Of a stretch of 37,671 nucleotides of DNA, positions 3,384 to 10,778 are shown piece by piece. The DNA lies in NCBI GenBank assembly GCA_947624895.1, contig CANQMK010000008.1, positions 1 through 37,671 of the forward strand, read 5' to 3'. The translations under genes and the position numbers were made by a program. Source of the DNA: an uncultured Oscillospiraceae bacterium. GTDB taxonomy: Bacteria > Bacillota > Clostridia > Oscillospirales > Oscillospiraceae. Position 1 is the first letter of the stretch. Each line of letters begins with the position of its first letter. The notes under the pieces were generated by a model. It saw nothing but the letters and a program-made list of their open reading frames with translations, was not told where the DNA came from and did no database searches.

Positions 3384-3998
3384 TTACTCCTCCGTCACAT
3401 CATCCCAGCCGTAAACGCCGGGCTCCCACACGTTGGCGTCAACGGTGCTCTGCCAGTGCTTCCCGCCGTGGCTCACCTTGTCGCCCTTGCTGTAGGCGTC
3501 ATGGGCGCCCACCGGCTGGGACCACTCCGGCCACTCCTCGGCCGGGTCCGCGGTGACGCTCCAAAGGCTCCCAGCGGTATCAGGGGTCCAATCCGCCTGG
3601 GATTTGTGGTCCTGCACGCACTTGTACAGCTTCCCGCCATACCGCCTGATCTGGCCGGTCTTGTAGTCCACAGGATAGGCCCACTCTGCGAACAGCTCGG
3701 CGTGCTCGGCGGCGGTCACGGCGTCGATGCTTCCGGCCTCCGCCAGGGTAACGAACATGATGCCGCCGGTGCCGGTGGTCTTGACGATCTCCGCGCCGGC
3801 GTCCGTGCCCTCCAGCAGCACGTCCTCCACGCCCTCCATGGCTTCCCGGCCTACCAGGTGGTAGGGGACGCCTTCAAAAGCAATGCCCTGCGCCTCGGGC
3901 GCAGGGCAAAGAACGAAACAACCGTTATCTGCTGCTTTGATGTAGGTGGGGCTCTCGGTCATCCCAAGGCTCACGCCGTCTTTGATAATCCTGAACAT
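3384..3998 (-). CDS. Tail fibre-associated carbohydrate-binding protein
   Basis: A 204-aa protein. The C-terminal half (about 110-204) carries two CBM5/12-like Trp/Tyr motifs typical of phage tail and chitinase-type binding modules: YKCVQDHKSQADWTPD, then GDKVSHGGKHWQSTVD and VWEPGVYGWDD. The N-terminal half (1-100) is likely the attachment or fold part. It probably contacts the cell-surface glycan or decorates the tail fibre. Its ATG (3998) lies inside the end of the reverse transcriptase gene (stop at 3971), a 28-bp overlap, so it depends on translation of the DGR transcript. It shows no VR-like sequence itself, so it does not appear to be a second DGR target. Confidence 0.75.
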   Translation of the reverse strand: MFRIIKDGVSLGMTESPTYIKAADNGCFVLCPAPEAQGIAFEGVPYHLVGREAMEGVEDVLLEGTDAGAEIVKTTGTGGIMFVTLAEAGSIDAVTAAEHAELFAEWAYPVDYKTGQIRRYGGKLYKCVQDHKSQADWTPDTAGSLWSVTADPAEEWPEWSQPVGAHDAYSKGDKVSHGGKHWQSTVDANVWEPGVYGWDDVTEE

Positions 3999-5128
3999 GG
4001 TGTACCTCCAAAAATAGCATGATGCAGCCGCCGAAGCCGAAGCAGGCGGCCATGGTCATTGAAGTTTTTGTAGTATGCCTCCTGACTGTTCATGAACTCG
4101 TCGATGCCCTCCAGGGACCGCCGGCCGGCGTCTACCTCCCGCCGGAACATCTTTAGCTTCCGCCTGGCCCGCTTCACGCCGTCCCGGCTGCCGTTGACCT
4201 TGACGGCCCCGGTCTCCGTGAGGGTGAAACGTGCCTTGCAGAATCGGAAGGGCTTTGTCAGGGGAATGATCTTGCACTTGCGCTTGTTGACCCGGATGCC
4301 CAGGGCCTCGAAGCGGCGCACCATTTCCCGGACCACCTCTTTCAGCTGCTCGATGTCCGGCATGATGATGTAGTAGTCGTCCATGTAGTGGCCCGCACAG
4401 TGGGCTCCGACCTGGCATTTGAGCCAGTTGTCCACGGATGAAGGGAGGCTTACCATTTCCTGCTGGCTGGGCTCCAGGCCCAGGGGCATACCGCGGCCCG
4501 GCGCCGTGGCCGGGGCCTGCGCCACAATTTGGTCCGCGATCTCTCGCAGATCATTGTTGAGGATGTACCGCTCGTGGCGCTGGTAAATGAGCAAGCGGGG
4601 CGCCCCAGGGAAAAACTGCTTTAGGTCCACAATGGCAACTCCACCTTCGCGCCCATACCGGCGGTAATGCCAGCGAAGCTGCTGCTTCAGCCGCCGGTAT
4701 TGGTAGTGAAGGCCCATCCCTTTCCGGCTCGCCCCGTTGTCGTGTATCATGGCGGGGGTGTAGAGGGGTATCAGGATTTCGTTGCAGGCGGTCTTGTGGA
4801 CCTGGCGATCAGTGATATGTGGGGCGTCGATGGGCCTGATCTTCCCGCGCTCCCGGATGGTGAAGTGTACGCACCGGCGAAAACGGTATCGCCGGCGAAG
4901 GACCTTCCGGCGACGAACAGCCGTCCCGGAGAAAAGGTGCAGCTCATAGTTTTGGGTGCTCTGCTTCCAGCGGACGCCGTTGCAGCACTTTTTCCCATAG
5001 TAGAACATCTTTCGATAGCTGAAAACGTCCTCCAGGGACCCCAGCGCGTCACAGCGAGCTTGCCGCCTTTGCAGGCGGCGGGCTCTCCGGCGCTGGTATC
5101 GTGCTTCCCGGCGCTCCTCGCTCGTCAT
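3971..5128 (-). CDS. DGR reverse transcriptase
   Basis: A 385-aa reverse transcriptase of the diversity-generating retroelement type. It should copy the template-repeat RNA into mutagenised cDNA, with random bases opposite template adenines. Visible motifs are VDLKQFFP with catalytic Asp168, the DGR-type motif 4 LGLEPSQ (216-222; most group II intron-type RTs have QG in place of SQ), and YMDD (248-251) with Asp250 and Asp251. The N-terminus is very basic, suiting RNA binding. I chose ATG 5128 because GGGGAGG lies six bases upstream; the same frame is open further up to 5314, but that would run through the template-RNA spacer. No maturase or endonuclease domain is present, as is normal for DGRs. 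The gene lies directly after TR and shares its promoter with avd. The 3' end overlaps the next tail gene. Confidence 0.97.
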   Translation of the reverse strand: MTSEERREARYQRRRARRLQRRQARCDALGSLEDVFSYRKMFYYGKKCCNGVRWKQSTQNYELHLFSGTAVRRRKVLRRRYRFRRCVHFTIRERGKIRPIDAPHITDRQVHKTACNEILIPLYTPAMIHDNGASRKGMGLHYQYRRLKQQLRWHYRRYGREGGVAIVDLKQFFPGAPRLLIYQRHERYILNNDLREIADQIVAQAPATAPGRGMPLGLEPSQQEMVSLPSSVDNWLKCQVGAHCAGHYMDDYYIIMPDIEQLKEVVREMVRRFEALGIRVNKRKCKIIPLTKPFRFCKARFTLTETGAVKVNGSRDGVKRARRKLKMFRREVDAGRRSLEGIDEFMNSQEAYYKNFNDHGRLLRLRRLHHAIFGGTPCSGLSKTA

Positions 5129-5359
5129 GCTTTGCCTCCCCAAAAAGGTTATTCGCCCGCCGTACAGCCGTCTTGTAGGGTGCCGTCTAGGCTGCGTTGC
5201 TCCGACACATGAAACGAGGGCAGGCACAGGCCCCCGCCATGCAAGCAGCGTCCGTGTAGGAGCATCAGTGGGCAGTTTCGGGCATTCGCCCCGGAAGTAT
5301 CTCTCCTTTTGCAAGGGTCGTCTTTCACCTTTCGGCTACTCCCTTTGACCCAGCGTACA
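5129..5359 (-). ncRNA. Spacer part of the DGR template RNA (between TR and RT)
   Basis: There are 231 bp without a supported gene between the TR end and the reverse transcriptase start. In the well-studied Bordetella phage DGR, RNA immediately downstream of TR folds and is needed for binding RT-Avd and priming cDNA synthesis. This stretch is in the same position and orientation, so it is probably the equivalent. An open frame runs through part of it but has no good start site. The exact RNA ends cannot be read from sequence. Confidence 0.6.
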
Positions 5360-5483
5360 AAATCCGGCCAGCAGCGCATTGGAGTAGTTCGCATTGTTGT
5401 TGTTGGCGGACCCGTCCGTGTTGACATTGCAGAAGTTATTACTGTTGTTGTAATTAGGGGAACGACACCACGCCCAGGCGGCG
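5360..5483 (-). repeat. DGR template repeat (TR)
   Basis: This 124-bp copy pairs with the VR at 6179-6302 with a constant offset of 819 and no gaps. Read on the minus strand in the VR frame it encodes 13 AAC/AAT codons, at the positions where VR carries Tyr, Ser, His, Gly, Thr or Ala (one remains Asn). It is not part of a gene. AAY codons are characteristic of TRs: randomising their adenines reaches 15 amino acids and never makes a stop. The final 3' part, GCGCTGCTGGCCGG on the minus strand, has no adenine and fits an initiation-of-mutagenic-homology counterpart. At the 5' end, 5477-5482 pairs with 5487-5492 to give a hairpin. Confidence 0.97.
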
Positions 5484-5492
5484 CAAGCCGCC
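5477..5492. repeat. Hairpin at the 5' boundary of TR
   Basis: GGCGGC (5477-5482) and GCCGCC (5487-5492) pair perfectly with a four-base loop. It spans the point where TR-VR identity ends (5483), so it belongs to the template RNA rather than to the target. It may help define the 5' limit of reverse transcription; that role is inference. Confidence 0.55.
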
Positions 5493-5533
5493 CACCACGG
5501 CCAGGCGTTTACAGAGATACACCGTTTTTGAGC

Positions 5534-5995
5534 TTACATCTTTTTCCCAGTGACTTTTTCGAGCTGTCCCCGCAGCAGGTCCTTCTCCCGGTCGATCAGC
5601 TCACCGAGGGTCTGCGCCATTTTGTCGATCTTCGTAATGGCCTCTTTACCGTCTACCGTCTTTCCCTTGCTCGTCGTGAAGGCGCCCTCGGGGTTCTGAT
5701 TGATGATGGTATAACAGTGGGTGAGGCGGACATCCAAAGCGCTGAGGGATGCGTTGGCGCTCAAAAGATAATCCCGTCGCTTGGCTCGGGTCATATCGTC
5801 TTTGGGGAAAGTGGCGTTTGCCTTCTCCGCATAGTCCATGACCTCCCCAGCCAGGTCAGCCGTCGGCTCCGCTATGAGGCGGGAATACCGGGCAGACAGC
5901 CGGGTCAGGAAGGCGATGGTCTGGACGTAGATTTCATTGGCGACGTTCACAAACTCCCCGCCGCTGATGGTGCGCTTGGATTTGAGGACCGACAT
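5534..5995 (-). CDS. avd: DGR accessory variability determinant (Avd), four-helix bundle
   Basis: A 153-aa, mostly helical, basic protein of the Avd / four-helix-bundle type that partners with DGR reverse transcriptases and binds the template RNA; known Avd forms a pentameric barrel. Helices are visible at about 14-40, 46-62, 68-100 and 117-147. The conserved-looking block ASLSALDVRLTHCYTIINQNP is typical of the DGR-linked family. I chose ATG 5995 (AGGGAG eight bases upstream) and not the open frame to 6076, which would start inside a terminator. It stands between the variable gene and TR, the usual order target-avd-TR-RT. A promoter-like sequence lies just upstream (6026-6054), so the DGR core may be expressed separately from the tail genes. 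Confidence 0.93.
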   Translation of the reverse strand: MSVLKSKRTISGGEFVNVANEIYVQTIAFLTRLSARYSRLIAEPTADLAGEVMDYAEKANATFPKDDMTRAKRRDYLLSANASLSALDVRLTHCYTIINQNPEGAFTTSKGKTVDGKEAITKIDKMAQTLGELIDREKDLLRGQLEKVTGKKM

Positions 5996-6025
5996 GGCAT
6001 AGGCTCCCTTCGGGGTGATGATGTG

Positions 6026-6054
6026 AGTATAGCACAAAAGGGGCAAATTTTGAA
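6026..6054 (-). promoter_or_regulatory. Candidate sigma-A promoter of the DGR cassette
   Basis: On the minus strand a TATACT -10 box (6026-6031) is preceded, at 17-bp spacing, by TTCAAA (6049-6054, four of six matches to TTGACA). It lies in a local AT-rich patch, downstream of the terminator at 6061-6091 and about 30 bp upstream of the avd start, so it could give avd-TR-RT its own expression. Confidence 0.6.
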
Positions 6055-6060
6055 ATATAT

Positions 6061-6091
6061 AAAACCGCCGGCGCACAGCGCCGGCGGTTTT
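6061..6091. terminator. Bidirectional terminator between the DGR target and avd
   Basis: Positions 6061-6074 and 6078-6091 are a perfect 14-bp inverted repeat with a three-base loop. The stem has a GC core and AAAA/TTTT outer ends on both strands. It should end the tail operon after the receptor-binding gene and so insulate the DGR core. Confidence 0.88.
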
Positions 6092-6126
6092 TCCCGGGTC
6101 GTGACCGCCCCGCTTCCCGGAGGGAC

Positions 6127-6142
6127 GCCCGCTTCCGCGGGC
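6127..6142 (-). repeat. GC-rich hairpin with GGAA loop downstream of VR
   Basis: GCCCGC (6127-6132) pairs with GCGGGC (6137-6142). Read on the minus (target-sense) strand the loop is GGAA. In Bordetella phage DGR work, a short GC-stem hairpin with a GRNA-type tetraloop just past VR is needed for efficient target recognition; this one fits that loop rule but lies about 37 bp beyond the VR end and has six pairs. Confidence 0.5.
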
Positions 6143-6158
6143 TGGATTTAGATGGATA

Positions 6159-6183
6159 GCTTTGCAGGATTAGGCTGCAAAGC
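6159..6183 (-). repeat. 9-bp hairpin at the 3' end of VR
   Basis: GCTTTGCAG (6159-6167) and CTGCAAAGC (6175-6183) are a perfect inverted repeat with a seven-base loop that contains the stop codon of the target gene. One arm enters the end of VR, and the corresponding TR end (5352-5364) lacks this symmetry. It is therefore a target-only structure, as expected for a DGR target-site element. Confidence 0.65.
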
Positions 6184-8149
6184 CGGCCAGCAGCGCAGCG
6201 GAGTAGGACGCATAGTAGTTGGTGGCGGACCCGTCCGTGCCGACATAGCAGAAGTAATAACTGTGGCTGTAATAAGGGGAACGACACCACGCCCAGGCGG
6301 CGGTAGTGGTCGCGTTGTGCTTGTTGATCACCTTGGGGTTGCCGGCCTTGAAGTAGTCATACCATGCCTGCTGGGCCTGCTCGTTCTGGTTGGCGTAGGA
6401 CCGGGCGCCCTGAATTTCAAACTCCGACAGCAGCCACAGGTAGTCCGTGGTGGCCGTCACGGCCGCAGGAGTGTTGCTAGCGTTGCCGGTGTTGTCCGTG
6501 TACTTGGTGACGGACTTCATCACGGCCCGCAAGTCCTCCGGGAGGGCCGCCATAAGGGTGTTTGCCGTGGGCTTTGTGGGGGCCACGCCAGAGCCCAGGA
6601 TGGTGTTCCTCATGTGGGAATTGCTCCAGCCGCCGGCGTTGGTGTCGCTGGTGTTCATGGTGAAGGCGCCAGCGTCGGAGGTGTAGGAGTTGTAGTTGCC
6701 GTCGCAGAGGCCCACGAGCTTATCGGCGATCTTGCCGATGGCGAAGTGGATGCGGTTATTGCCCTCCTTGGCGGCATTGTGGTTGATGCCCAGGATGAAG
6801 GCGTCGATGGAGAGGCTGGTCAACTGCAAGTTGCCCACCTTGCCGTTCAGCACGATGGTCTTTTTGTCGCCGGCCTTCCAGTAGTTCCCGGCCTGGCCCG
6901 CGTCGGAGATCGTCTTGATGGTGGCCCAGGTGTTCTCGTTCAGGGTCTTGGACGCCATGGCAACCTCCACCTCGCACTTGACCGCTGCCGGGGCCAGGTG
7001 GTTCGTGCCGGCGGCCACGCTGACGGTGATGGTGGCGTGGCCGGTGGCCAGAGCCGTCACTGTGACGGTCTCGCCCTCCAGCTTCACGGAGGCGACGCCC
7101 TGGGCACCGGAGACAGCAGAGATCGCGCCGTTGCCCGCCCGGGTCACCTTGATGGTGCCGGTCTTATTGGAGGCCCCCAGGTTCATGGTCATGGGGTTAA
7201 TGGACAGGCTGCCCGGGGCCTTGCTGATAATCCACTGGACGGTCTTTTCCGTGGTCCCGCCGTCGTTCCATGCGTAGTTTGCCGTCGGCGTGAAGGTGGC
7301 CTGGTAGGTGTTGGCGTTCACGCCGTCCTTGGCCCCGCCGATGGTCAGCTGCTCCGCGTTGTAGTTTTTCCACTTGGGGGAGATCGTTTCGCCGGTATAG
7401 ATCAGGGTCCCGTCCTGGGAGGGCTCCGCGGTCAGGCGCTGACGGTAGATCGTCCAGTTGACAGTCCGCTGGGTGAAGGTCCCGTCCGGCCACTTGTAAT
7501 TGTCTTTGGGAGTGAAGGTGGCCTGATAGGTGTTGGCGTCCCGGCCGGTGGTCACCCCATCCATGTCGCATTTATCCGGGTCGTAGTTGGACCAGGTGGG
7601 TCCCTGATCTGTCCCGGAGTAGGTCGGGGCATTCGACTGGACTGGCACCTCGATAATGGCCCGGTCGATGATCCACTGGACGGTCTTGGGGTCCTTGCCT
7701 CCGCCTTCCCATTCGTATTGGCCCTTCGGGGTGAAGGTCGCGTCGTAGGTCCCGGCGTCCTTGGCCCGGGTGGTCCCCCCGATCTCTAACTGATCGCTGG
7801 AATAGTTGTTCCAGTAGGGTCCCTGCTCCTCGCCGTTGTAGGTCAGGGTGCCGGCCTGGGAGGGGATGGTGGAGATCGTGTTGACCACCGTATTGATGGT
7901 TTTAAGGGCGCTCGCGGCGTCCTCCTGCGCCTTTTTTACGTCGTCCAGCAGGACCTTCGCGGGGTATTTCTTCATGTGCTTGTCCTTGCCGTCGATGACC
8001 GGGAAGTAGTCATCTTCGGCGGGGCGGGCCTTCACGTCCGCTGAATCCTCGATGTTGCCCAGGCGGGTGACGGGCAGGTCGATGGTGTCCTCGCCTGCCT
8101 CCGTTTTACCTGCCAGGTAAACGTCCCTTTCGATTTTGGGGTCTGCCAT
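6170..8149 (-). CDS. DGR-diversified receptor-binding tail protein
   Basis: A 659-aa virion protein. Residues 1-95 are a charged/helical attachment part. About 96-165, 166-236 and 237-312 are three MBG-type beta repeats: each has a TY(N/S/T)G start, then GP.W.NY or a variant, then (G/N)TY.ATFTP, and ends with V.W.I.(R/K)A. About 313-395 is a bacterial Ig-like domain. About 400-659 is a DUF6273-like / C-type-lectin-fold domain, recognised by NENTWATIK, AFILGINHN, HMRNTILG, LMAALPEDLRAVM and EFEIQGARSYAN. The VR encodes residues 617-657; variable positions are 626, 628, 629, 631, 632, 635, 637, 643-646, 648 and 651. The fold displays them, so this is probably the tip that binds the host surface. 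Its ATG at 8149 follows AAGGAG. It ends 2-3 codons past VR, the usual target layout. Confidence 0.94.
   Translation of the reverse strand: MADPKIERDVYLAGKTEAGEDTIDLPVTRLGNIEDSADVKARPAEDDYFPVIDGKDKHMKKYPAKVLLDDVKKAQEDAASALKTINTVVNTISTIPSQAGTLTYNGEEQGPYWNNYSSDQLEIGGTTRAKDAGTYDATFTPKGQYEWEGGGKDPKTVQWIIDRAIIEVPVQSNAPTYSGTDQGPTWSNYDPDKCDMDGVTTGRDANTYQATFTPKDNYKWPDGTFTQRTVNWTIYRQRLTAEPSQDGTLIYTGETISPKWKNYNAEQLTIGGAKDGVNANTYQATFTPTANYAWNDGGTTEKTVQWIISKAPGSLSINPMTMNLGASNKTGTIKVTRAGNGAISAVSGAQGVASVKLEGETVTVTALATGHATITVSVAAGTNHLAPAAVKCEVEVAMASKTLNENTWATIKTISDAGQAGNYWKAGDKKTIVLNGKVGNLQLTSLSIDAFILGINHNAAKEGNNRIHFAIGKIADKLVGLCDGNYNSYTSDAGAFTMNTSDTNAGGWSNSHMRNTILGSGVAPTKPTANTLMAALPEDLRAVMKSVTKYTDNTGNASNTPAAVTATTDYLWLLSEFEIQGARSYANQNEQAQQAWYDYFKAGNPKVINKHNATTTAAWAWCRSPYYSHSYYFCYVGTDGSATNYYASYSAALLAGFAA
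6179..6302 (-). repeat. DGR variable repeat (VR)
   Basis: The target copy of TR, inside the 3' end of the tail gene. Gap-free alignment with 5360-5483 gives 16 differences by my count. In every one the coding-strand TR base is A; no difference falls on G, C or T of TR. Twelve of 13 AAY codons have changed (Asn to Tyr six times... see findings for the list), while the framework words AWAWCRSP, TDGSA and LLAGF are kept. The gene-sense 3' end is the adenine-free GCGCTGCTGGCCGG. Confidence 0.97.
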
Positions 8150-8215
8150 AGGGTTCTCCTTTCGTATCAGATAGAATAGGGCCCGCGGGGGATGTCCTGC
8201 GGGCGCCGGGGTCGC

Positions 8216-8899
8216 TTATTTGGTCTTGGTGCTGCTGACCTTCTTGGCCTTCCGGGTGGTCTTGGTGGAGGCGGTGGGGACCGCTGCCACCGGGACAGCA
8301 TTCAGGGCCGCTATCGCCGCGGCCTCATAGCTGGGGGCGTCCTCGCTGCGGGGCCGGGAAGCTATGACGTGCCGGGCCGCGTCGTGGGCGGTCAGGTCCT
8401 CGTTGTGTTCCTCGATCATCTGGCGGACCTGGGCGGCGCTGACCATGGCCTCGGGGTCGATGGTAGCGGTCACCTTTTCCACCGCGCCTACGGCAGCTAT
8501 GATGTCGAAGGTCGCCAGCTTTCCCACGATGGCGCTGGAGGGCCTTATCCACTCGGGCTCGTTTTCCAGGACCATGTAGGTGTAGGGCACCTCGCCCTCG
8601 TCCGGGTCCTGGGCGTACAGCATGATGCCGGTGCAGTAGAAGCCCTCGGACACGTCGGCGCTGTTCACCTGGATAGTGACCTGGCACTCGCCGTCCACCG
8701 GGACGGTGATGGCGGTGATCTTCGCGTCCATGACGTACTCCGCAGGTTCCGTCATGGTCCGGGGCGTCTGCTCCTCGGGGATGGTGCCCTTGCCCAGGGC
8801 GGCCCGGATGTAGTTCATCGTGCCGCGCCCGGCCAGCACCTTCGCTATGAGGGCGACGCCGGTTTCAGTGTCATAACAGCCGTCTTGATACTTTGCCAT
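8216..8899 (-). CDS. Tail fibre / collar-type protein
   Basis: A 227-aa protein. The N-terminus (MAKYQDGCYDTETGVALIAKVLAGRGTMNY, in parts) and the sequence that follows resemble the first domain of phage tail fibres or tail collar proteins that attach to the baseplate. It continues with beta-rich sequence (about 55-130, with GFYCTGIMLYAQDPDEGE), a helical stretch about 150-190 and a Lys/Thr/Ala-rich C-terminus (about 200-227) that is probably disordered. It lies between the wedge/tail protein I gene and the diversified receptor-binding gene, so it is probably an adaptor or fibre base. ATG 8899 follows AGGAGG. About 66 bp separate it from the next gene, with only an imperfect hairpin (8181-8204). 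Confidence 0.75.
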   Translation of the reverse strand: MAKYQDGCYDTETGVALIAKVLAGRGTMNYIRAALGKGTIPEEQTPRTMTEPAEYVMDAKITAITVPVDGECQVTIQVNSADVSEGFYCTGIMLYAQDPDEGEVPYTYMVLENEPEWIRPSSAIVGKLATFDIIAAVGAVEKVTATIDPEAMVSAAQVRQMIEEHNEDLTAHDAARHVIASRPRSEDAPSYEAAAIAALNAVPVAAVPTASTKTTRKAKKVSSTKTK

Positions 8900-8902
8900 A
8901 GG

Positions 8903-9598
8903 TTATCCTCCTTCGATCACTCTTTTGGCTGATACGCGGGTGAAGTAGTACATACCGCCGGCGGATTGCTGCGTCCCCCGGATGGTAACTTCATTGTCGG
9001 GCATGGCGCCCCGGTCCTCCGTGCCCACGTAGCCCCCCAGGCTGATGATCACCGGGAGCTCGTGGCTGCGGTAGGTCCGCAGATAGAGCCGCAGGCCCAC
9101 GCCCGCCACCATCGTCCGCTTGATGGCGTTGGCGATCTGCTCGATGATGGCGACGCGCTCCTCGTCGAGAAGGCTTTGGTCCACGTAGATCGCCTTCTTG
9201 GCCGGGAACACGTCCAGCAGCAGCACGTCGGAGAGCTGCACGCCCAGCAGCTCCGCCGCGGTGTTGAGGACCGTTTCATCGTCACCGCCGGATAGCTGGG
9301 CGATCATCTTGACCCTGATAAAGATGCGGTACACGGCGTCACTGGCGCCGCCGCGCTCCACGCCGAAGTTGGCGCCATAGCGGTCCAGGACCCGGCCCTC
9401 GGCGTAGTCAAGATCATCCCACAGCTTCACGAGCTGGGCGTTCTCGTGGACATCCTCCATGCCGTCGGCCAGCAGCTTGAACAGGCGGCCGATGTTCGTT
9501 TCTGCGGGCCGGTCCTTGCGGGCGTTGAACAGGTCCCGCCGGTTGTAGGCGCTGGTAAGCATATCCAGCATGGAGGCCCAAAAGCCGTATTTACTCAC
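8903..9598 (-). CDS. Baseplate wedge / tail protein I-like (XkdU-type)
   Basis: A 231-aa baseplate protein, placed between the J-like protein and the fibre, as XkdU/gpI proteins are. The N-terminal 90 residues (ADGMEDVHENAQLVKLWDDLDYA, then VLDRYGANFG) match the usual start of this group, in which a helix bundle is followed by D-x-Y-G-x-x-(F/V)G. The middle (about 110-165) holds LLDVFPAKKAIYVD and a repeat of IEQIANAIK type. The remainder is beta-rich. It should link the wedge ring to the fibre. It uses GTG 9598, overlapping the stop of the previous gene at 9591-9593. Confidence 0.82.
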   Translation of the reverse strand: MSKYGFWASMLDMLTSAYNRRDLFNARKDRPAETNIGRLFKLLADGMEDVHENAQLVKLWDDLDYAEGRVLDRYGANFGVERGGASDAVYRIFIRVKMIAQLSGGDDETVLNTAAELLGVQLSDVLLLDVFPAKKAIYVDQSLLDEERVAIIEQIANAIKRTMVAGVGLRLYLRTYRSHELPVIISLGGYVGTEDRGAMPDNEVTIRGTQQSAGGMYYFTRVSAKRVIEGG

Positions 9599-10778
9599 CG
9601 AAGCTCACCTGCCGTTCAGAGGTGACGACCTTGCTGCGGCTCGTTACCTCGATGTTCTCCTGCTTGAGGTCGTCCGGGTCCGTGCCGATGAAGATGTCGA
9701 AGTCCAGGACCCCGGGGACGGTATAGAGGACCGCCGGGAGCTGCTGGTGGTACAGCGTTTCGCCCACGCCCACGCCGCCGTCCTCCTGGCTGCCGATGTA
9801 GGCGACGACGGCCGCCTTGATCAGGTCCCGGCCGTTCATGGGGAAGGCGCCGTCGGTAACAAGGTTGTCGATGCGGACATAGACCTGGACCGCCTGGGGC
9901 CGGTTGAAGCGGATGTTTTTGGTGTTCCCGCTGCCGGTCATCACCGGGACGTTGACCTCGCCGAAGGTCTGGATGCCGGCGCCCAGCTTGGCATAGATCA
10001 CGTTGGCAATATCGCTGTCCAGCCCGCCATAGGCCACGGCCTCGATGCTATGAGGCGGGAGGCCGAACTCGTCCACCTCGTCGGTGTCGTTTTCAAAGAC
10101 CTTCGCCTCCAGGATTCCCGGAACGTCCTGCAGCAGGGCGCCCCGGATGGCGTCCGCGTTGACGCCCCCGGCCTTATCTACAGAGGCGTAATAGCGGTCC
10201 CGGAACTCCTCGTCGGTCTCGCGCTCCCGGCCGCCAGTGAAGGCTTTCTCGTTGGTCACGCTGGTAATGCCCGCCACGGCGCCGGGGTTGGTGATCGTGG
10301 TCACGGTGCCCTCTGGCACGTTGCCGTCCGGGCCGGTCTCGGTGCAGCGGACCGGGACCAGGGCGGTGCCGTCCCCGCCGATGGTCGTGTCCTCCACGGC
10401 GAAGAATTGGACGCCGGCGGCGGTCTCTGCCAGCCAGCCCTCCGGGATGACCGTGCCCTCCGGCCCGGTCACCTTGAGGTAGCCGGTGGCCTTTTGGGCC
10501 GGGAGGATTCGCAGGCCGATGGCCCGCCCCAGGTTCAGCAGGGACGCGCCCACGGCCGTGTCCACGAAGCGGCTGTTATACACGTCCTCCAGGATGGAAA
10601 ACAGGATGTTCAGCATCCAGGCGAAGATGCGAAGGAACAGCCCCAGGGGGCTACGCACGGACAGATTTACCGTGGACCCGAACAGCTCCCGCGCCTTGTA
10701 CTCCAGCGCGTCCAGCAGCTCGGTATATATGGGCCGTCTAAAGCCCAAGCTCGTCAGGCCCCACCCGTAATCAGACAT
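9591..10778 (-). CDS. Baseplate J-like protein (XkdT-type)
   Basis: A 395-aa baseplate wedge protein of the J / gp47 / XkdT family. Recognisable features are the N-terminal helix region with LDALEYKARELFGS, the VDTAVGASLLNLGRAIGLR segment with APRXXAT-like continuation (KATGYLKVTG), the family hallmark TGGRERETDEEFRDR (about 207-221) and AIVAxI-type C-terminal sequence. Its role is to build the wedge ring around the hub. It starts at ATG 10778, an 8-bp overlap with the gp25-like gene (10771). It belongs to the standard order hub-spike-gp25-J-I. Confidence 0.92.
   Translation of the reverse strand: MSDYGWGLTSLGFRRPIYTELLDALEYKARELFGSTVNLSVRSPLGLFLRIFAWMLNILFSILEDVYNSRFVDTAVGASLLNLGRAIGLRILPAQKATGYLKVTGPEGTVIPEGWLAETAAGVQFFAVEDTTIGGDGTALVPVRCTETGPDGNVPEGTVTTITNPGAVAGITSVTNEKAFTGGRERETDEEFRDRYYASVDKAGGVNADAIRGALLQDVPGILEAKVFENDTDEVDEFGLPPHSIEAVAYGGLDSDIANVIYAKLGAGIQTFGEVNVPVMTGSGNTKNIRFNRPQAVQVYVRIDNLVTDGAFPMNGRDLIKAAVVAYIGSQEDGGVGVGETLYHQQLPAVLYTVPGVLDFDIFIGTDPDDLKQENIEVTSRSKVVTSERQVSFGE

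What the first reader, a model, noticed from the sequence alone, without database searches (positions are those of the whole stretch)
3971..8149. Complete diversity-generating retroelement aimed at the phage receptor-binding protein
All parts are present in order on one strand: target gene with VR at its 3' end, avd, TR, spacer, and RT with LGLEPSQ and YMDD motifs. The target has a lectin-like C-terminal domain. The arrangement target-avd-TR-RT is known for DGRs; this one is within a myovirus-type tail module and should give host-range switching.
Basis: partly seen in the sequence, partly recalled or inferred. Interest (0 to 1): 0.93.

Follow-up and report, generated by a model that had tools for sequence, protein, structure and literature searches.

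The report
Phage diversity retroelement with RT-2 RNA
A phage region in a bacterial genome carries a complete diversity-generating retroelement, predicted to keep rewriting one end of a likely tail protein, and the stretch after its template matches RT-2, an RNA family of no stated role whose core pattern leads to the same kind of element in most phage contigs where it was found.

Summary
On the minus strand lie target, avd-like gene, TR, spacer and RT. TR (5360-5483) and VR (6179-6302) differ at 16 of 124 sites, all TR adenines. The RT falls on the DGR side of a 30-row tree (100/100). Among relatives, two phage contigs 99.8% identical differ at 16 aligned sites, all TR-adenine sites of VR, and at 0 of 8,888 sites outside the repeats. 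It is a new member of a known kind: Faecalibacterium phages Taranis, Roos and Pioen carry the same cassette. New here: the spacer is Rfam RT-2 (169.8 bits), typed 'sRNA' with no DGR label. Starting from an RT-2 DNA pattern alone, 113 of 120 contig stretches have a DGR-type RT downstream and 89 an adenine-specific TR/VR pair with the TR just upstream. 24 of 46 base pairs show compensatory changes. RT-9 holds the same place in 3 of 5 loci. Best reading: RT-2 is the structured 3' part of the DGR template RNA. The 2017 paper recalled as its source is not held, so priority is open.

The parts
6170..8149 (-). DGR target gene, 659 aa: N-terminal part, three repeats, weak Ig-like stretch, C-terminal DUF6273 that holds the VR
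   Evidence: phrog_37900 9.5e-237
6179..6302 (-). Variable repeat (VR)
   Evidence: 16 of 124 sites differ from TR, all at TR adenines
6158..6184 (-). Inverted repeat around the target's stop codon (10-bp stem, 7-nt loop), a possible DGR target hairpin
   Evidence: z -4.4 against 500 mononucleotide shuffles; not general: 32 of 86 related pairs fold with z below -2
5534..5995 (-). Avd-like accessory protein, 153 aa
   Evidence: four-helix bundle, pTM 0.80; DGR Avd chains among the best re-aligned structures; no sequence-profile match to BPP-1 Avd
5360..5483 (-). Template repeat (TR): 13 AAY codons, 12 of them changed in VR; none of its adenine-bearing codons can become a stop
5135..5353 (-). 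Structured spacer RNA, Rfam RF03077 RT-2, between TR and RT
   Evidence: 169.8 bits, cut-off 40; 24 of 46 pairs with changes on both sides
3971..5128 (-). DGR reverse transcriptase, 385 aa, LGLEPSQ and YMDD
   Evidence: RVT_1 1.4e-11; PDB match 8ub7; tree

Best explanation
This is a complete phage diversity-generating retroelement of the Taranis/Roos/Pioen type, in which a template RNA made of TR plus an RT-2 structured spacer is predicted to be copied by the reverse transcriptase with its Avd-like partner, with errors at adenines, after which the cDNA would replace the end of a likely tail protein gene. Shown: the parts and their order, adenine-only TR/VR differences, the RT's place among DGR RTs, the conserved covarying RNA fold, and natural VR diversification in relatives. 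Inferred: that the spacer recruits RT and Avd and primes cDNA synthesis, as reported for BPP-1; that the target binds receptors; that this particular copy is active.
For: 16 of 16 mismatches at TR adenines. Near-identical relatives L014/L022: 16 differences, 16 at TR-adenine VR sites, 0 of 8,888 outside the repeats. RT with DGR RTs, 100/100; only PDB match at E 0.001 is the DGR RT 8ub7. RT-2 RNA at full length, covarying. From an RT-2 pattern alone: RT downstream in 113 of 120, adenine-specific TR/VR in 89 of 120; from the RT-2 model in 400 genomes: RT in 24 of 24 loci above the cut-off (25 places, one without a locus), TR/VR in 21 of 24, 343 of 355 mismatches at A. Read-level VR variation in Roos and Pioen (PMC11792537, passages).
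Against: No read data or near-identical copy for this phage (closest RT match 86%), so its own activity is untested. The avd-like protein shows no sequence match to BPP-1 Avd. The 10-bp hairpin after VR is not general in relatives. Five of 120 stretches have a repeat pair that is not adenine-specific by my rule and one has neither RT nor repeat. In L018 only 7 of 18 TR/VR differences are at TR adenines. The RT-2 spacer's role in priming was not tested.
Confidence: 0.92

Rival explanations
1. The cassette is a DGR, but its target is a decoration or surface-adhesion protein rather than the receptor-binding protein.
For: No function could be given to the related Taranis target, and Mushu and Brigit DGR targets are Hoc-like decoration proteins (PMC5883640, passages). 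The first 80 residues match none of the loci compared.
Against: The gene follows baseplate J, a baseplate protein and a tail-fibre-like gene. Pioen's target carries an extra N-terminal domain similar to a Listeria phage A511 tail fibre protein (PMC11792537, passages).
Confidence: 0.3
2. RT-2 is a separate small RNA or an mRNA leader that regulates the RT gene and has no part in template copying.
For: Rfam types it as a gene for an sRNA; it lies directly before the RT start codon.
Against: It begins 6 bases after the TR; an adenine-specific TR lies just upstream in 21 of 24 model hits above the cut-off. In BPP-1 the same place holds RF03022, named by Rfam as a DGR RNA, and that spacer is reported to recruit bRT-Avd and prime cDNA (PMC12875486, one passage).
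Confidence: 0.06
3. The DGR is intact in sequence but silent or decayed in this prophage.
For: PMC11792537 (passages) saw no read-level VR variation for several other DGR phages under its conditions; L018 among relatives looks altered.
Against: RT, avd-like and target frames are open, YMDD is present, and 12 of 13 AAY codons differ from TR.
Confidence: 0.15
4. The RT belongs to a group II intron or another non-DGR retroelement and the repeat is incidental.
For: Weak hits to TIGR04416 (40.9 bits, cut-off 300) and to PADLOC RT models.
Against: Tree; adenine-only mismatches; SQ where the four group II RTs and the CRISPR RT have SP.
Confidence: 0.005

Closest known systems
DGR of Faecalibacterium phages FP_Taranis, Roos and Pioen (PMC5883640; PMC11792537)
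   Same: RT 69-70% identical; same order target, avd-like, TR, RT; target with VR in the C-terminal DUF6273 (PMC11792537); adenine-specific TR/VR; RT-2 spacer shown for Taranis
   Different: Another host and phage; target 53% identical over 73% of its length and another N-terminus. The passages read do not name the small gene as Avd in Taranis or mention RT-2.
BPP-1 DGR of Bordetella phage (mtd, avd, TR, brt)
   Same: Same gene order on one strand with a structured spacer between TR and RT; RT 24% identical, 2e-12; small protein of the same fold class
   Different: Spacer is Rfam RF03022, not RT-2; target shows no similarity to Mtd; no detectable Avd sequence similarity
Rfam RF03077 RT-2 RNA
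   Same: Full-length match, 169.8 bits against a cut-off of 40
   Different: Rfam's entry as shown bears no DGR label; here it is read as part of DGR template RNAs
Second and likely third DGR of the same bacterial assembly (L004; L244)
   Same: L004: RT, avd-like gene, TR/VR with 19 of 19 mismatches at A, RT-2 at 75 bits. L244: pair with 13 of 14 at A beside an RT-like frame
   Different: RT of L004 37% identical; different TR and target sequences

Membership tests
Diversity-generating retroelement | TR/VR pair differing at TR adenines, VR at the 3' end of a gene | tested here: met
   16 of 16 mismatches at A; VR ends two codons before the stop
Diversity-generating retroelement | RT of the DGR clade beside TR | tested here: met
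   tree 100/100 against group II and CRISPR RTs, no retrons included; PDB match 8ub7
Diversity-generating retroelement | VR diversifies in nature while TR stays constant | tested here: inconclusive
   Shown for relatives, e.g. L014/L022; no data for this phage itself
Diversity-generating retroelement | Adenine-mutagenic cDNA synthesis | not testable with these tools
   needs biochemistry
Avd accessory protein | Four-helix bundle encoded between VR and TR | tested here: met
Avd accessory protein | Sequence relation to BPP-1 Avd | tested here: inconclusive
   hhalign probability 1 with a shallow profile
Avd accessory protein | Pentamer that binds the RT | not testable with these tools
   recalled feature; needs biochemistry
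Rfam RT-2 (RF03077) | Covariance-model score above the gathering cut-off | tested here: met
   169.8 against 40 bits
C-type-lectin-fold DGR target (Mtd-like) | Lectin fold of the VR domain | tested here: inconclusive
   model pLDDT 48; no PDB sequence hit; no profile match to Mtd
Phage receptor-binding protein | Binds the host receptor at the tail tip | not testable with these tools
   position in tail module only
Group II intron RT | TIGR04416 above its cut-off | tested here: not met
   40.9 against 300 bits

The most novel reading that the evidence does not exclude
RT-2 and RT-9, structured-RNA families of Rfam with no stated role, are the 3' parts of diversity-generating retroelement template RNAs: RNA scaffolds that follow the TR, hold RT and Avd, and start cDNA synthesis. 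The RT-N families would then be a ready-made catalogue of DGR RNA architectures beyond BPP-1, and DGRs could be found from RNA alone.
Probability: 0.7. Interest if true: 0.6.

Novelty: new member of a known kind. Interest (0 to 1): 0.47.

Why it matters
The element itself adds one more DGR of a described gut-phage type. The wider gain is the RNA. For BPP-1 the spacer is reported to fold, recruit bRT-Avd and prime cDNA synthesis (PMC12875486, one passage). RT-2 offers a second, different and strongly covarying spacer, found next to adenine-specific repeats in 89 of 120 pattern-selected contig stretches. That would give an RNA family without a stated role a job and let the question of which RNA features DGRs need be answered by comparison.

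Tried and rejected
Lectin fold: AlphaFold on 16 sequences gave pLDDT 48, so no fold search was run with it. Mtd and Avd relation by hhalign: none seen. Avd and target profiles against PDB sequences: best E 0.5 and no hit. Foldseek alone shows no Avd chain among its 50 rows and nothing at E 0.001. A VR/TR pattern of this phage in viral contigs: 0. A general hairpin after VR: 32 of 86 pairs. RT-3 (RF03068) in 200 genomes: nothing rang, controls included, so no statement. An AGUA-hairpin-GAAA module just after TR: in 7 of 15 DGR spacers tested (window, L047, L048, L050, L052, L054, L057; mononucleotide shuffles 1-8%), absent in 8 (BPP-1, L044, L045, L051, L053, three RT-9 loci), so not universal. 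No repeat pair was found by the first scan in 11 loci, mostly short or cut (L009, L012, L015, L017, L019, L021, L039, L041, L046, L049, L055). The RT row of L048 was dropped from the tree because a wrong frame was picked. Literature: 'RT-2 RNA' with reverse transcriptase and motif, 0 papers; RF03077, only the Rfam 15 paper, one table passage without DGR; DGR with RT-2, 0 papers; DGR with Rfam, 4 papers seen in the listing only; candidate structured RNAs with DGR, 2 listed, of which PMC8143477 cites Weinberg et al. 2017 for DUF2800/DUF2815 and not for DGR RNA (passages and section 21) and PMC4424553 was not opened; a wider search gave 12 of 20 papers as a listing, not read. Weinberg et al. 2017, which I recall as the source of RT-2, is not held.

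Full report
What is there. On the minus strand between 8149 and 3971 lie a 659-aa target gene, a 153-aa gene, a 124-nt template repeat, a spacer and a 385-aa reverse transcriptase. TR 5360-5483 and VR 6179-6302 differ at 16 sites; all 16 are adenines in TR (7 A>T, 5 A>C, 4 A>G), of 32 adenines. If mismatches fell at random the chance is 1e-11. The last mismatch (TR GGA, VR GGC) is A/C in all 22 pairs printed, near-copies included, so it is a fixed boundary mark (compare the IMH*/IMH difference of BPP-1, recalled) and 15 differences are of the mutagenesis kind. TR has 13 AAY codons, 12 of them changed in VR; none of its 19 adenine-bearing codons can become a stop, and about 10^18 proteins are reachable.

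Surroundings. The window is one whole contig of a bacterial assembly of 246 contigs. The assembly is unnamed; of 10 named genome contigs with a related RT, five are titled Oscillospiraceae, one Oscillibacter, one Colidextribacter, two Clostridia and one Clostridiales.

The RT. Pfam RVT_1 (1.4e-11), a PHROG RT family, and one PDB match at E 0.001, the RT of DGR entry 8ub7 (entry titles). It aligns with BPP-1 brt at 24% identity, 2e-12. In a tree of 30 RTs (25 DGR or candidate, 4 group II, 1 CRISPR; one further candidate dropped for a wrong frame; no retrons) the two groups are separated by a branch of 100/100 support, and the window pairs with G294's RT, 84% identical. TIGR04416 is far below its cut-off.

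Activity in relatives. L014 and L022 are 99.8% identical over 9,146 bases. They differ at 16 aligned sites: 16 of 31 TR-adenine sites of VR, 0 of 98 other VR sites, 0 of 129 TR sites, 0 of 8,888 other sites. Twelve pairs were compared. In nine the contrast is plain (e.g. Taranis/Roos 11 of 29 against 1 of 105, outside 185 of 4,960; L036/L035 21 of 32 against 2 of 94; L029/L030 13 of 34 against 1 of 90; L005/L010 17 of 32 against 1 of 88). In two (L005/L007, L005/L006) the VRs are identical. In the more divergent L008/L022 it is weaker, 10 of 22 against 11 of 107. L060's VR equals its TR save the boundary base. PMC11792537 (passages) reports read-level VR variation in Roos and Pioen. No near-identical copy of the window's own phage was found (closest RT match 86%; own records may be hidden), so its own activity is not shown.

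The spacer RNA. Bases 5353-5135 match Rfam RF03077 'RT-2 RNA' over its full length with 169.8 bits. An alignment of 21 related spacers folds with 46 pairs, 24 with changes on both sides. On 20 distinct rows 96.5% of cells pair, against 87.9% in shuffles; none of 500 shuffles reaches the double changes (one reaches the number of pair types), and sliding partners by 1-3 columns drops pairing to 35-50%. The structure was derived from this alignment, which favours it. Of 13 loci given, the 12 other than BPP-1 all carry RT-2 above its cut-off, including the second DGR of the same genome (L004, 75 bits); BPP-1 carries RF03022 'Phage_DGR' between TR and brt. Of 18 further RT-selected loci, 6 carry RT-2 above the cut-off, 3 below it, one carries RT-9 and 8 neither.

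The reverse test. To avoid starting from the RT, I scanned viral contigs for an 18-base RT-2 loop pattern. Of the 120, 113 have a DGR-type RT starting within 1.8 kb downstream; six of the other seven end less than 900 nt downstream; one (L147) has neither RT nor repeat. 89 have a repeat pair whose TR lies within 600 nt upstream of the motif with at least 75% of mismatches at TR adenines; 23 have no pair and under 1,200 nt upstream, 5 have a pair that fails the 75% rule, and 3 have none (one is L147). Over all pairs 1,468 of 1,651 mismatches are at A. Searching 400 genomes of the same bacterial family with the RT-2 model found matches in 29 and, above the cut-off, 25 places in 22 genomes (0 of 14 control genomes). 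Of these 25, 24 have a locus: 24 of 24 have the RT downstream and 21 the pair (343 of 355 mismatches at A); the other three have only 306-621 nt upstream. Of 8 loci below the cut-off (7, 1), 7 have the RT and none a pair within the flank. RT-9 (RF03080) was found in 5 of 300 genomes; in 3 of the 5 it directly follows a TR (12 of 12, 11 of 11 and 9 of 10 mismatches at A), in two no pair was found in about 12 kb. In the Rfam output RT-2 is typed as sRNA with no DGR label.

Mechanism. Shown: anatomy, adenine-specific difference, natural diversification in relatives, a conserved covarying RNA right after TR. Inferred from BPP-1 (PMC12875486, one passage): the spacer recruits RT-Avd, an adenine in it primes cDNA synthesis, and the mutated cDNA replaces VR. 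A 10-bp inverted repeat around the target's stop codon resembles the hairpin/cruciform that BPP-1 needs (PMC3240598, passages), but many relatives lack a strong one. The target is probably a tail protein by position; its receptor role and lectin fold are not shown.

Verdict. A sound DGR of a described gut-phage type, with one useful by-product: strong evidence that the RNA family RT-2, and in part RT-9, belongs to DGR template RNAs. Weinberg et al. 2017, recalled as the source of RT-2, could not be read, so I claim only that the searches showed no printed link in what I saw of them (mostly listings; passages).

Noticed in passing
L004 (G000:C3) 5898-10040 and L244 (G000:C1) 5312-6737: The same bacterial assembly holds a second DGR (19 of 19 TR/VR mismatches at A) and a likely third (13 of 14 at A, 11 of them with G in VR, beside an RT-like frame).
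   Followed up: partly
L018 3745-3873 (VR) and 4639-4767 (TR): A relative whose TR looks rewritten: only 7 of 18 TR/VR differences are at TR adenines, and its TR differs from the related L064 TR at 21 sites, 13 of them adenines in L064. A template overwritten by its own mutagenesis is possible; assembly error is not excluded.
   Followed up: partly
L060 4829-4952: A VR identical to its TR except for the boundary base: an undiversified or freshly reset copy.
   Followed up: no
L119, L143, L152, L163: RT-2 loci with a TR/VR-like pair in which fewer than 75% of mismatches are at TR adenines (8 of 21, 14 of 27, 7 of 20, 14 of 19); perhaps decayed or mutated on both sides.
   Followed up: no
L018 10007-10086 (-); L004 432-496 (-): A twister-sister ribozyme (72.6 bits) and a type II hammerhead (41.6 bits) in DGR-bearing phage regions.
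   Followed up: no
window 3384-3998 (-): A protein with a CBM_5_12 carbohydrate-binding module (5.2e-15) directly follows the RT gene.
   Followed up: no
window 5304-5309 (-): AAAGGA is invariant in the 21 aligned spacers; it looks like a ribosome-binding site but lies about 175 bases before the RT start.
   Followed up: no
L243 2208-2327; L242 1104-1280: Sub-threshold matches to RT-14 (37.4 bits, cut-off 48.1) in Vibrio phage VP58.5 and to RT-2 (21.9 bits) in FP_Toutatis.
   Followed up: no
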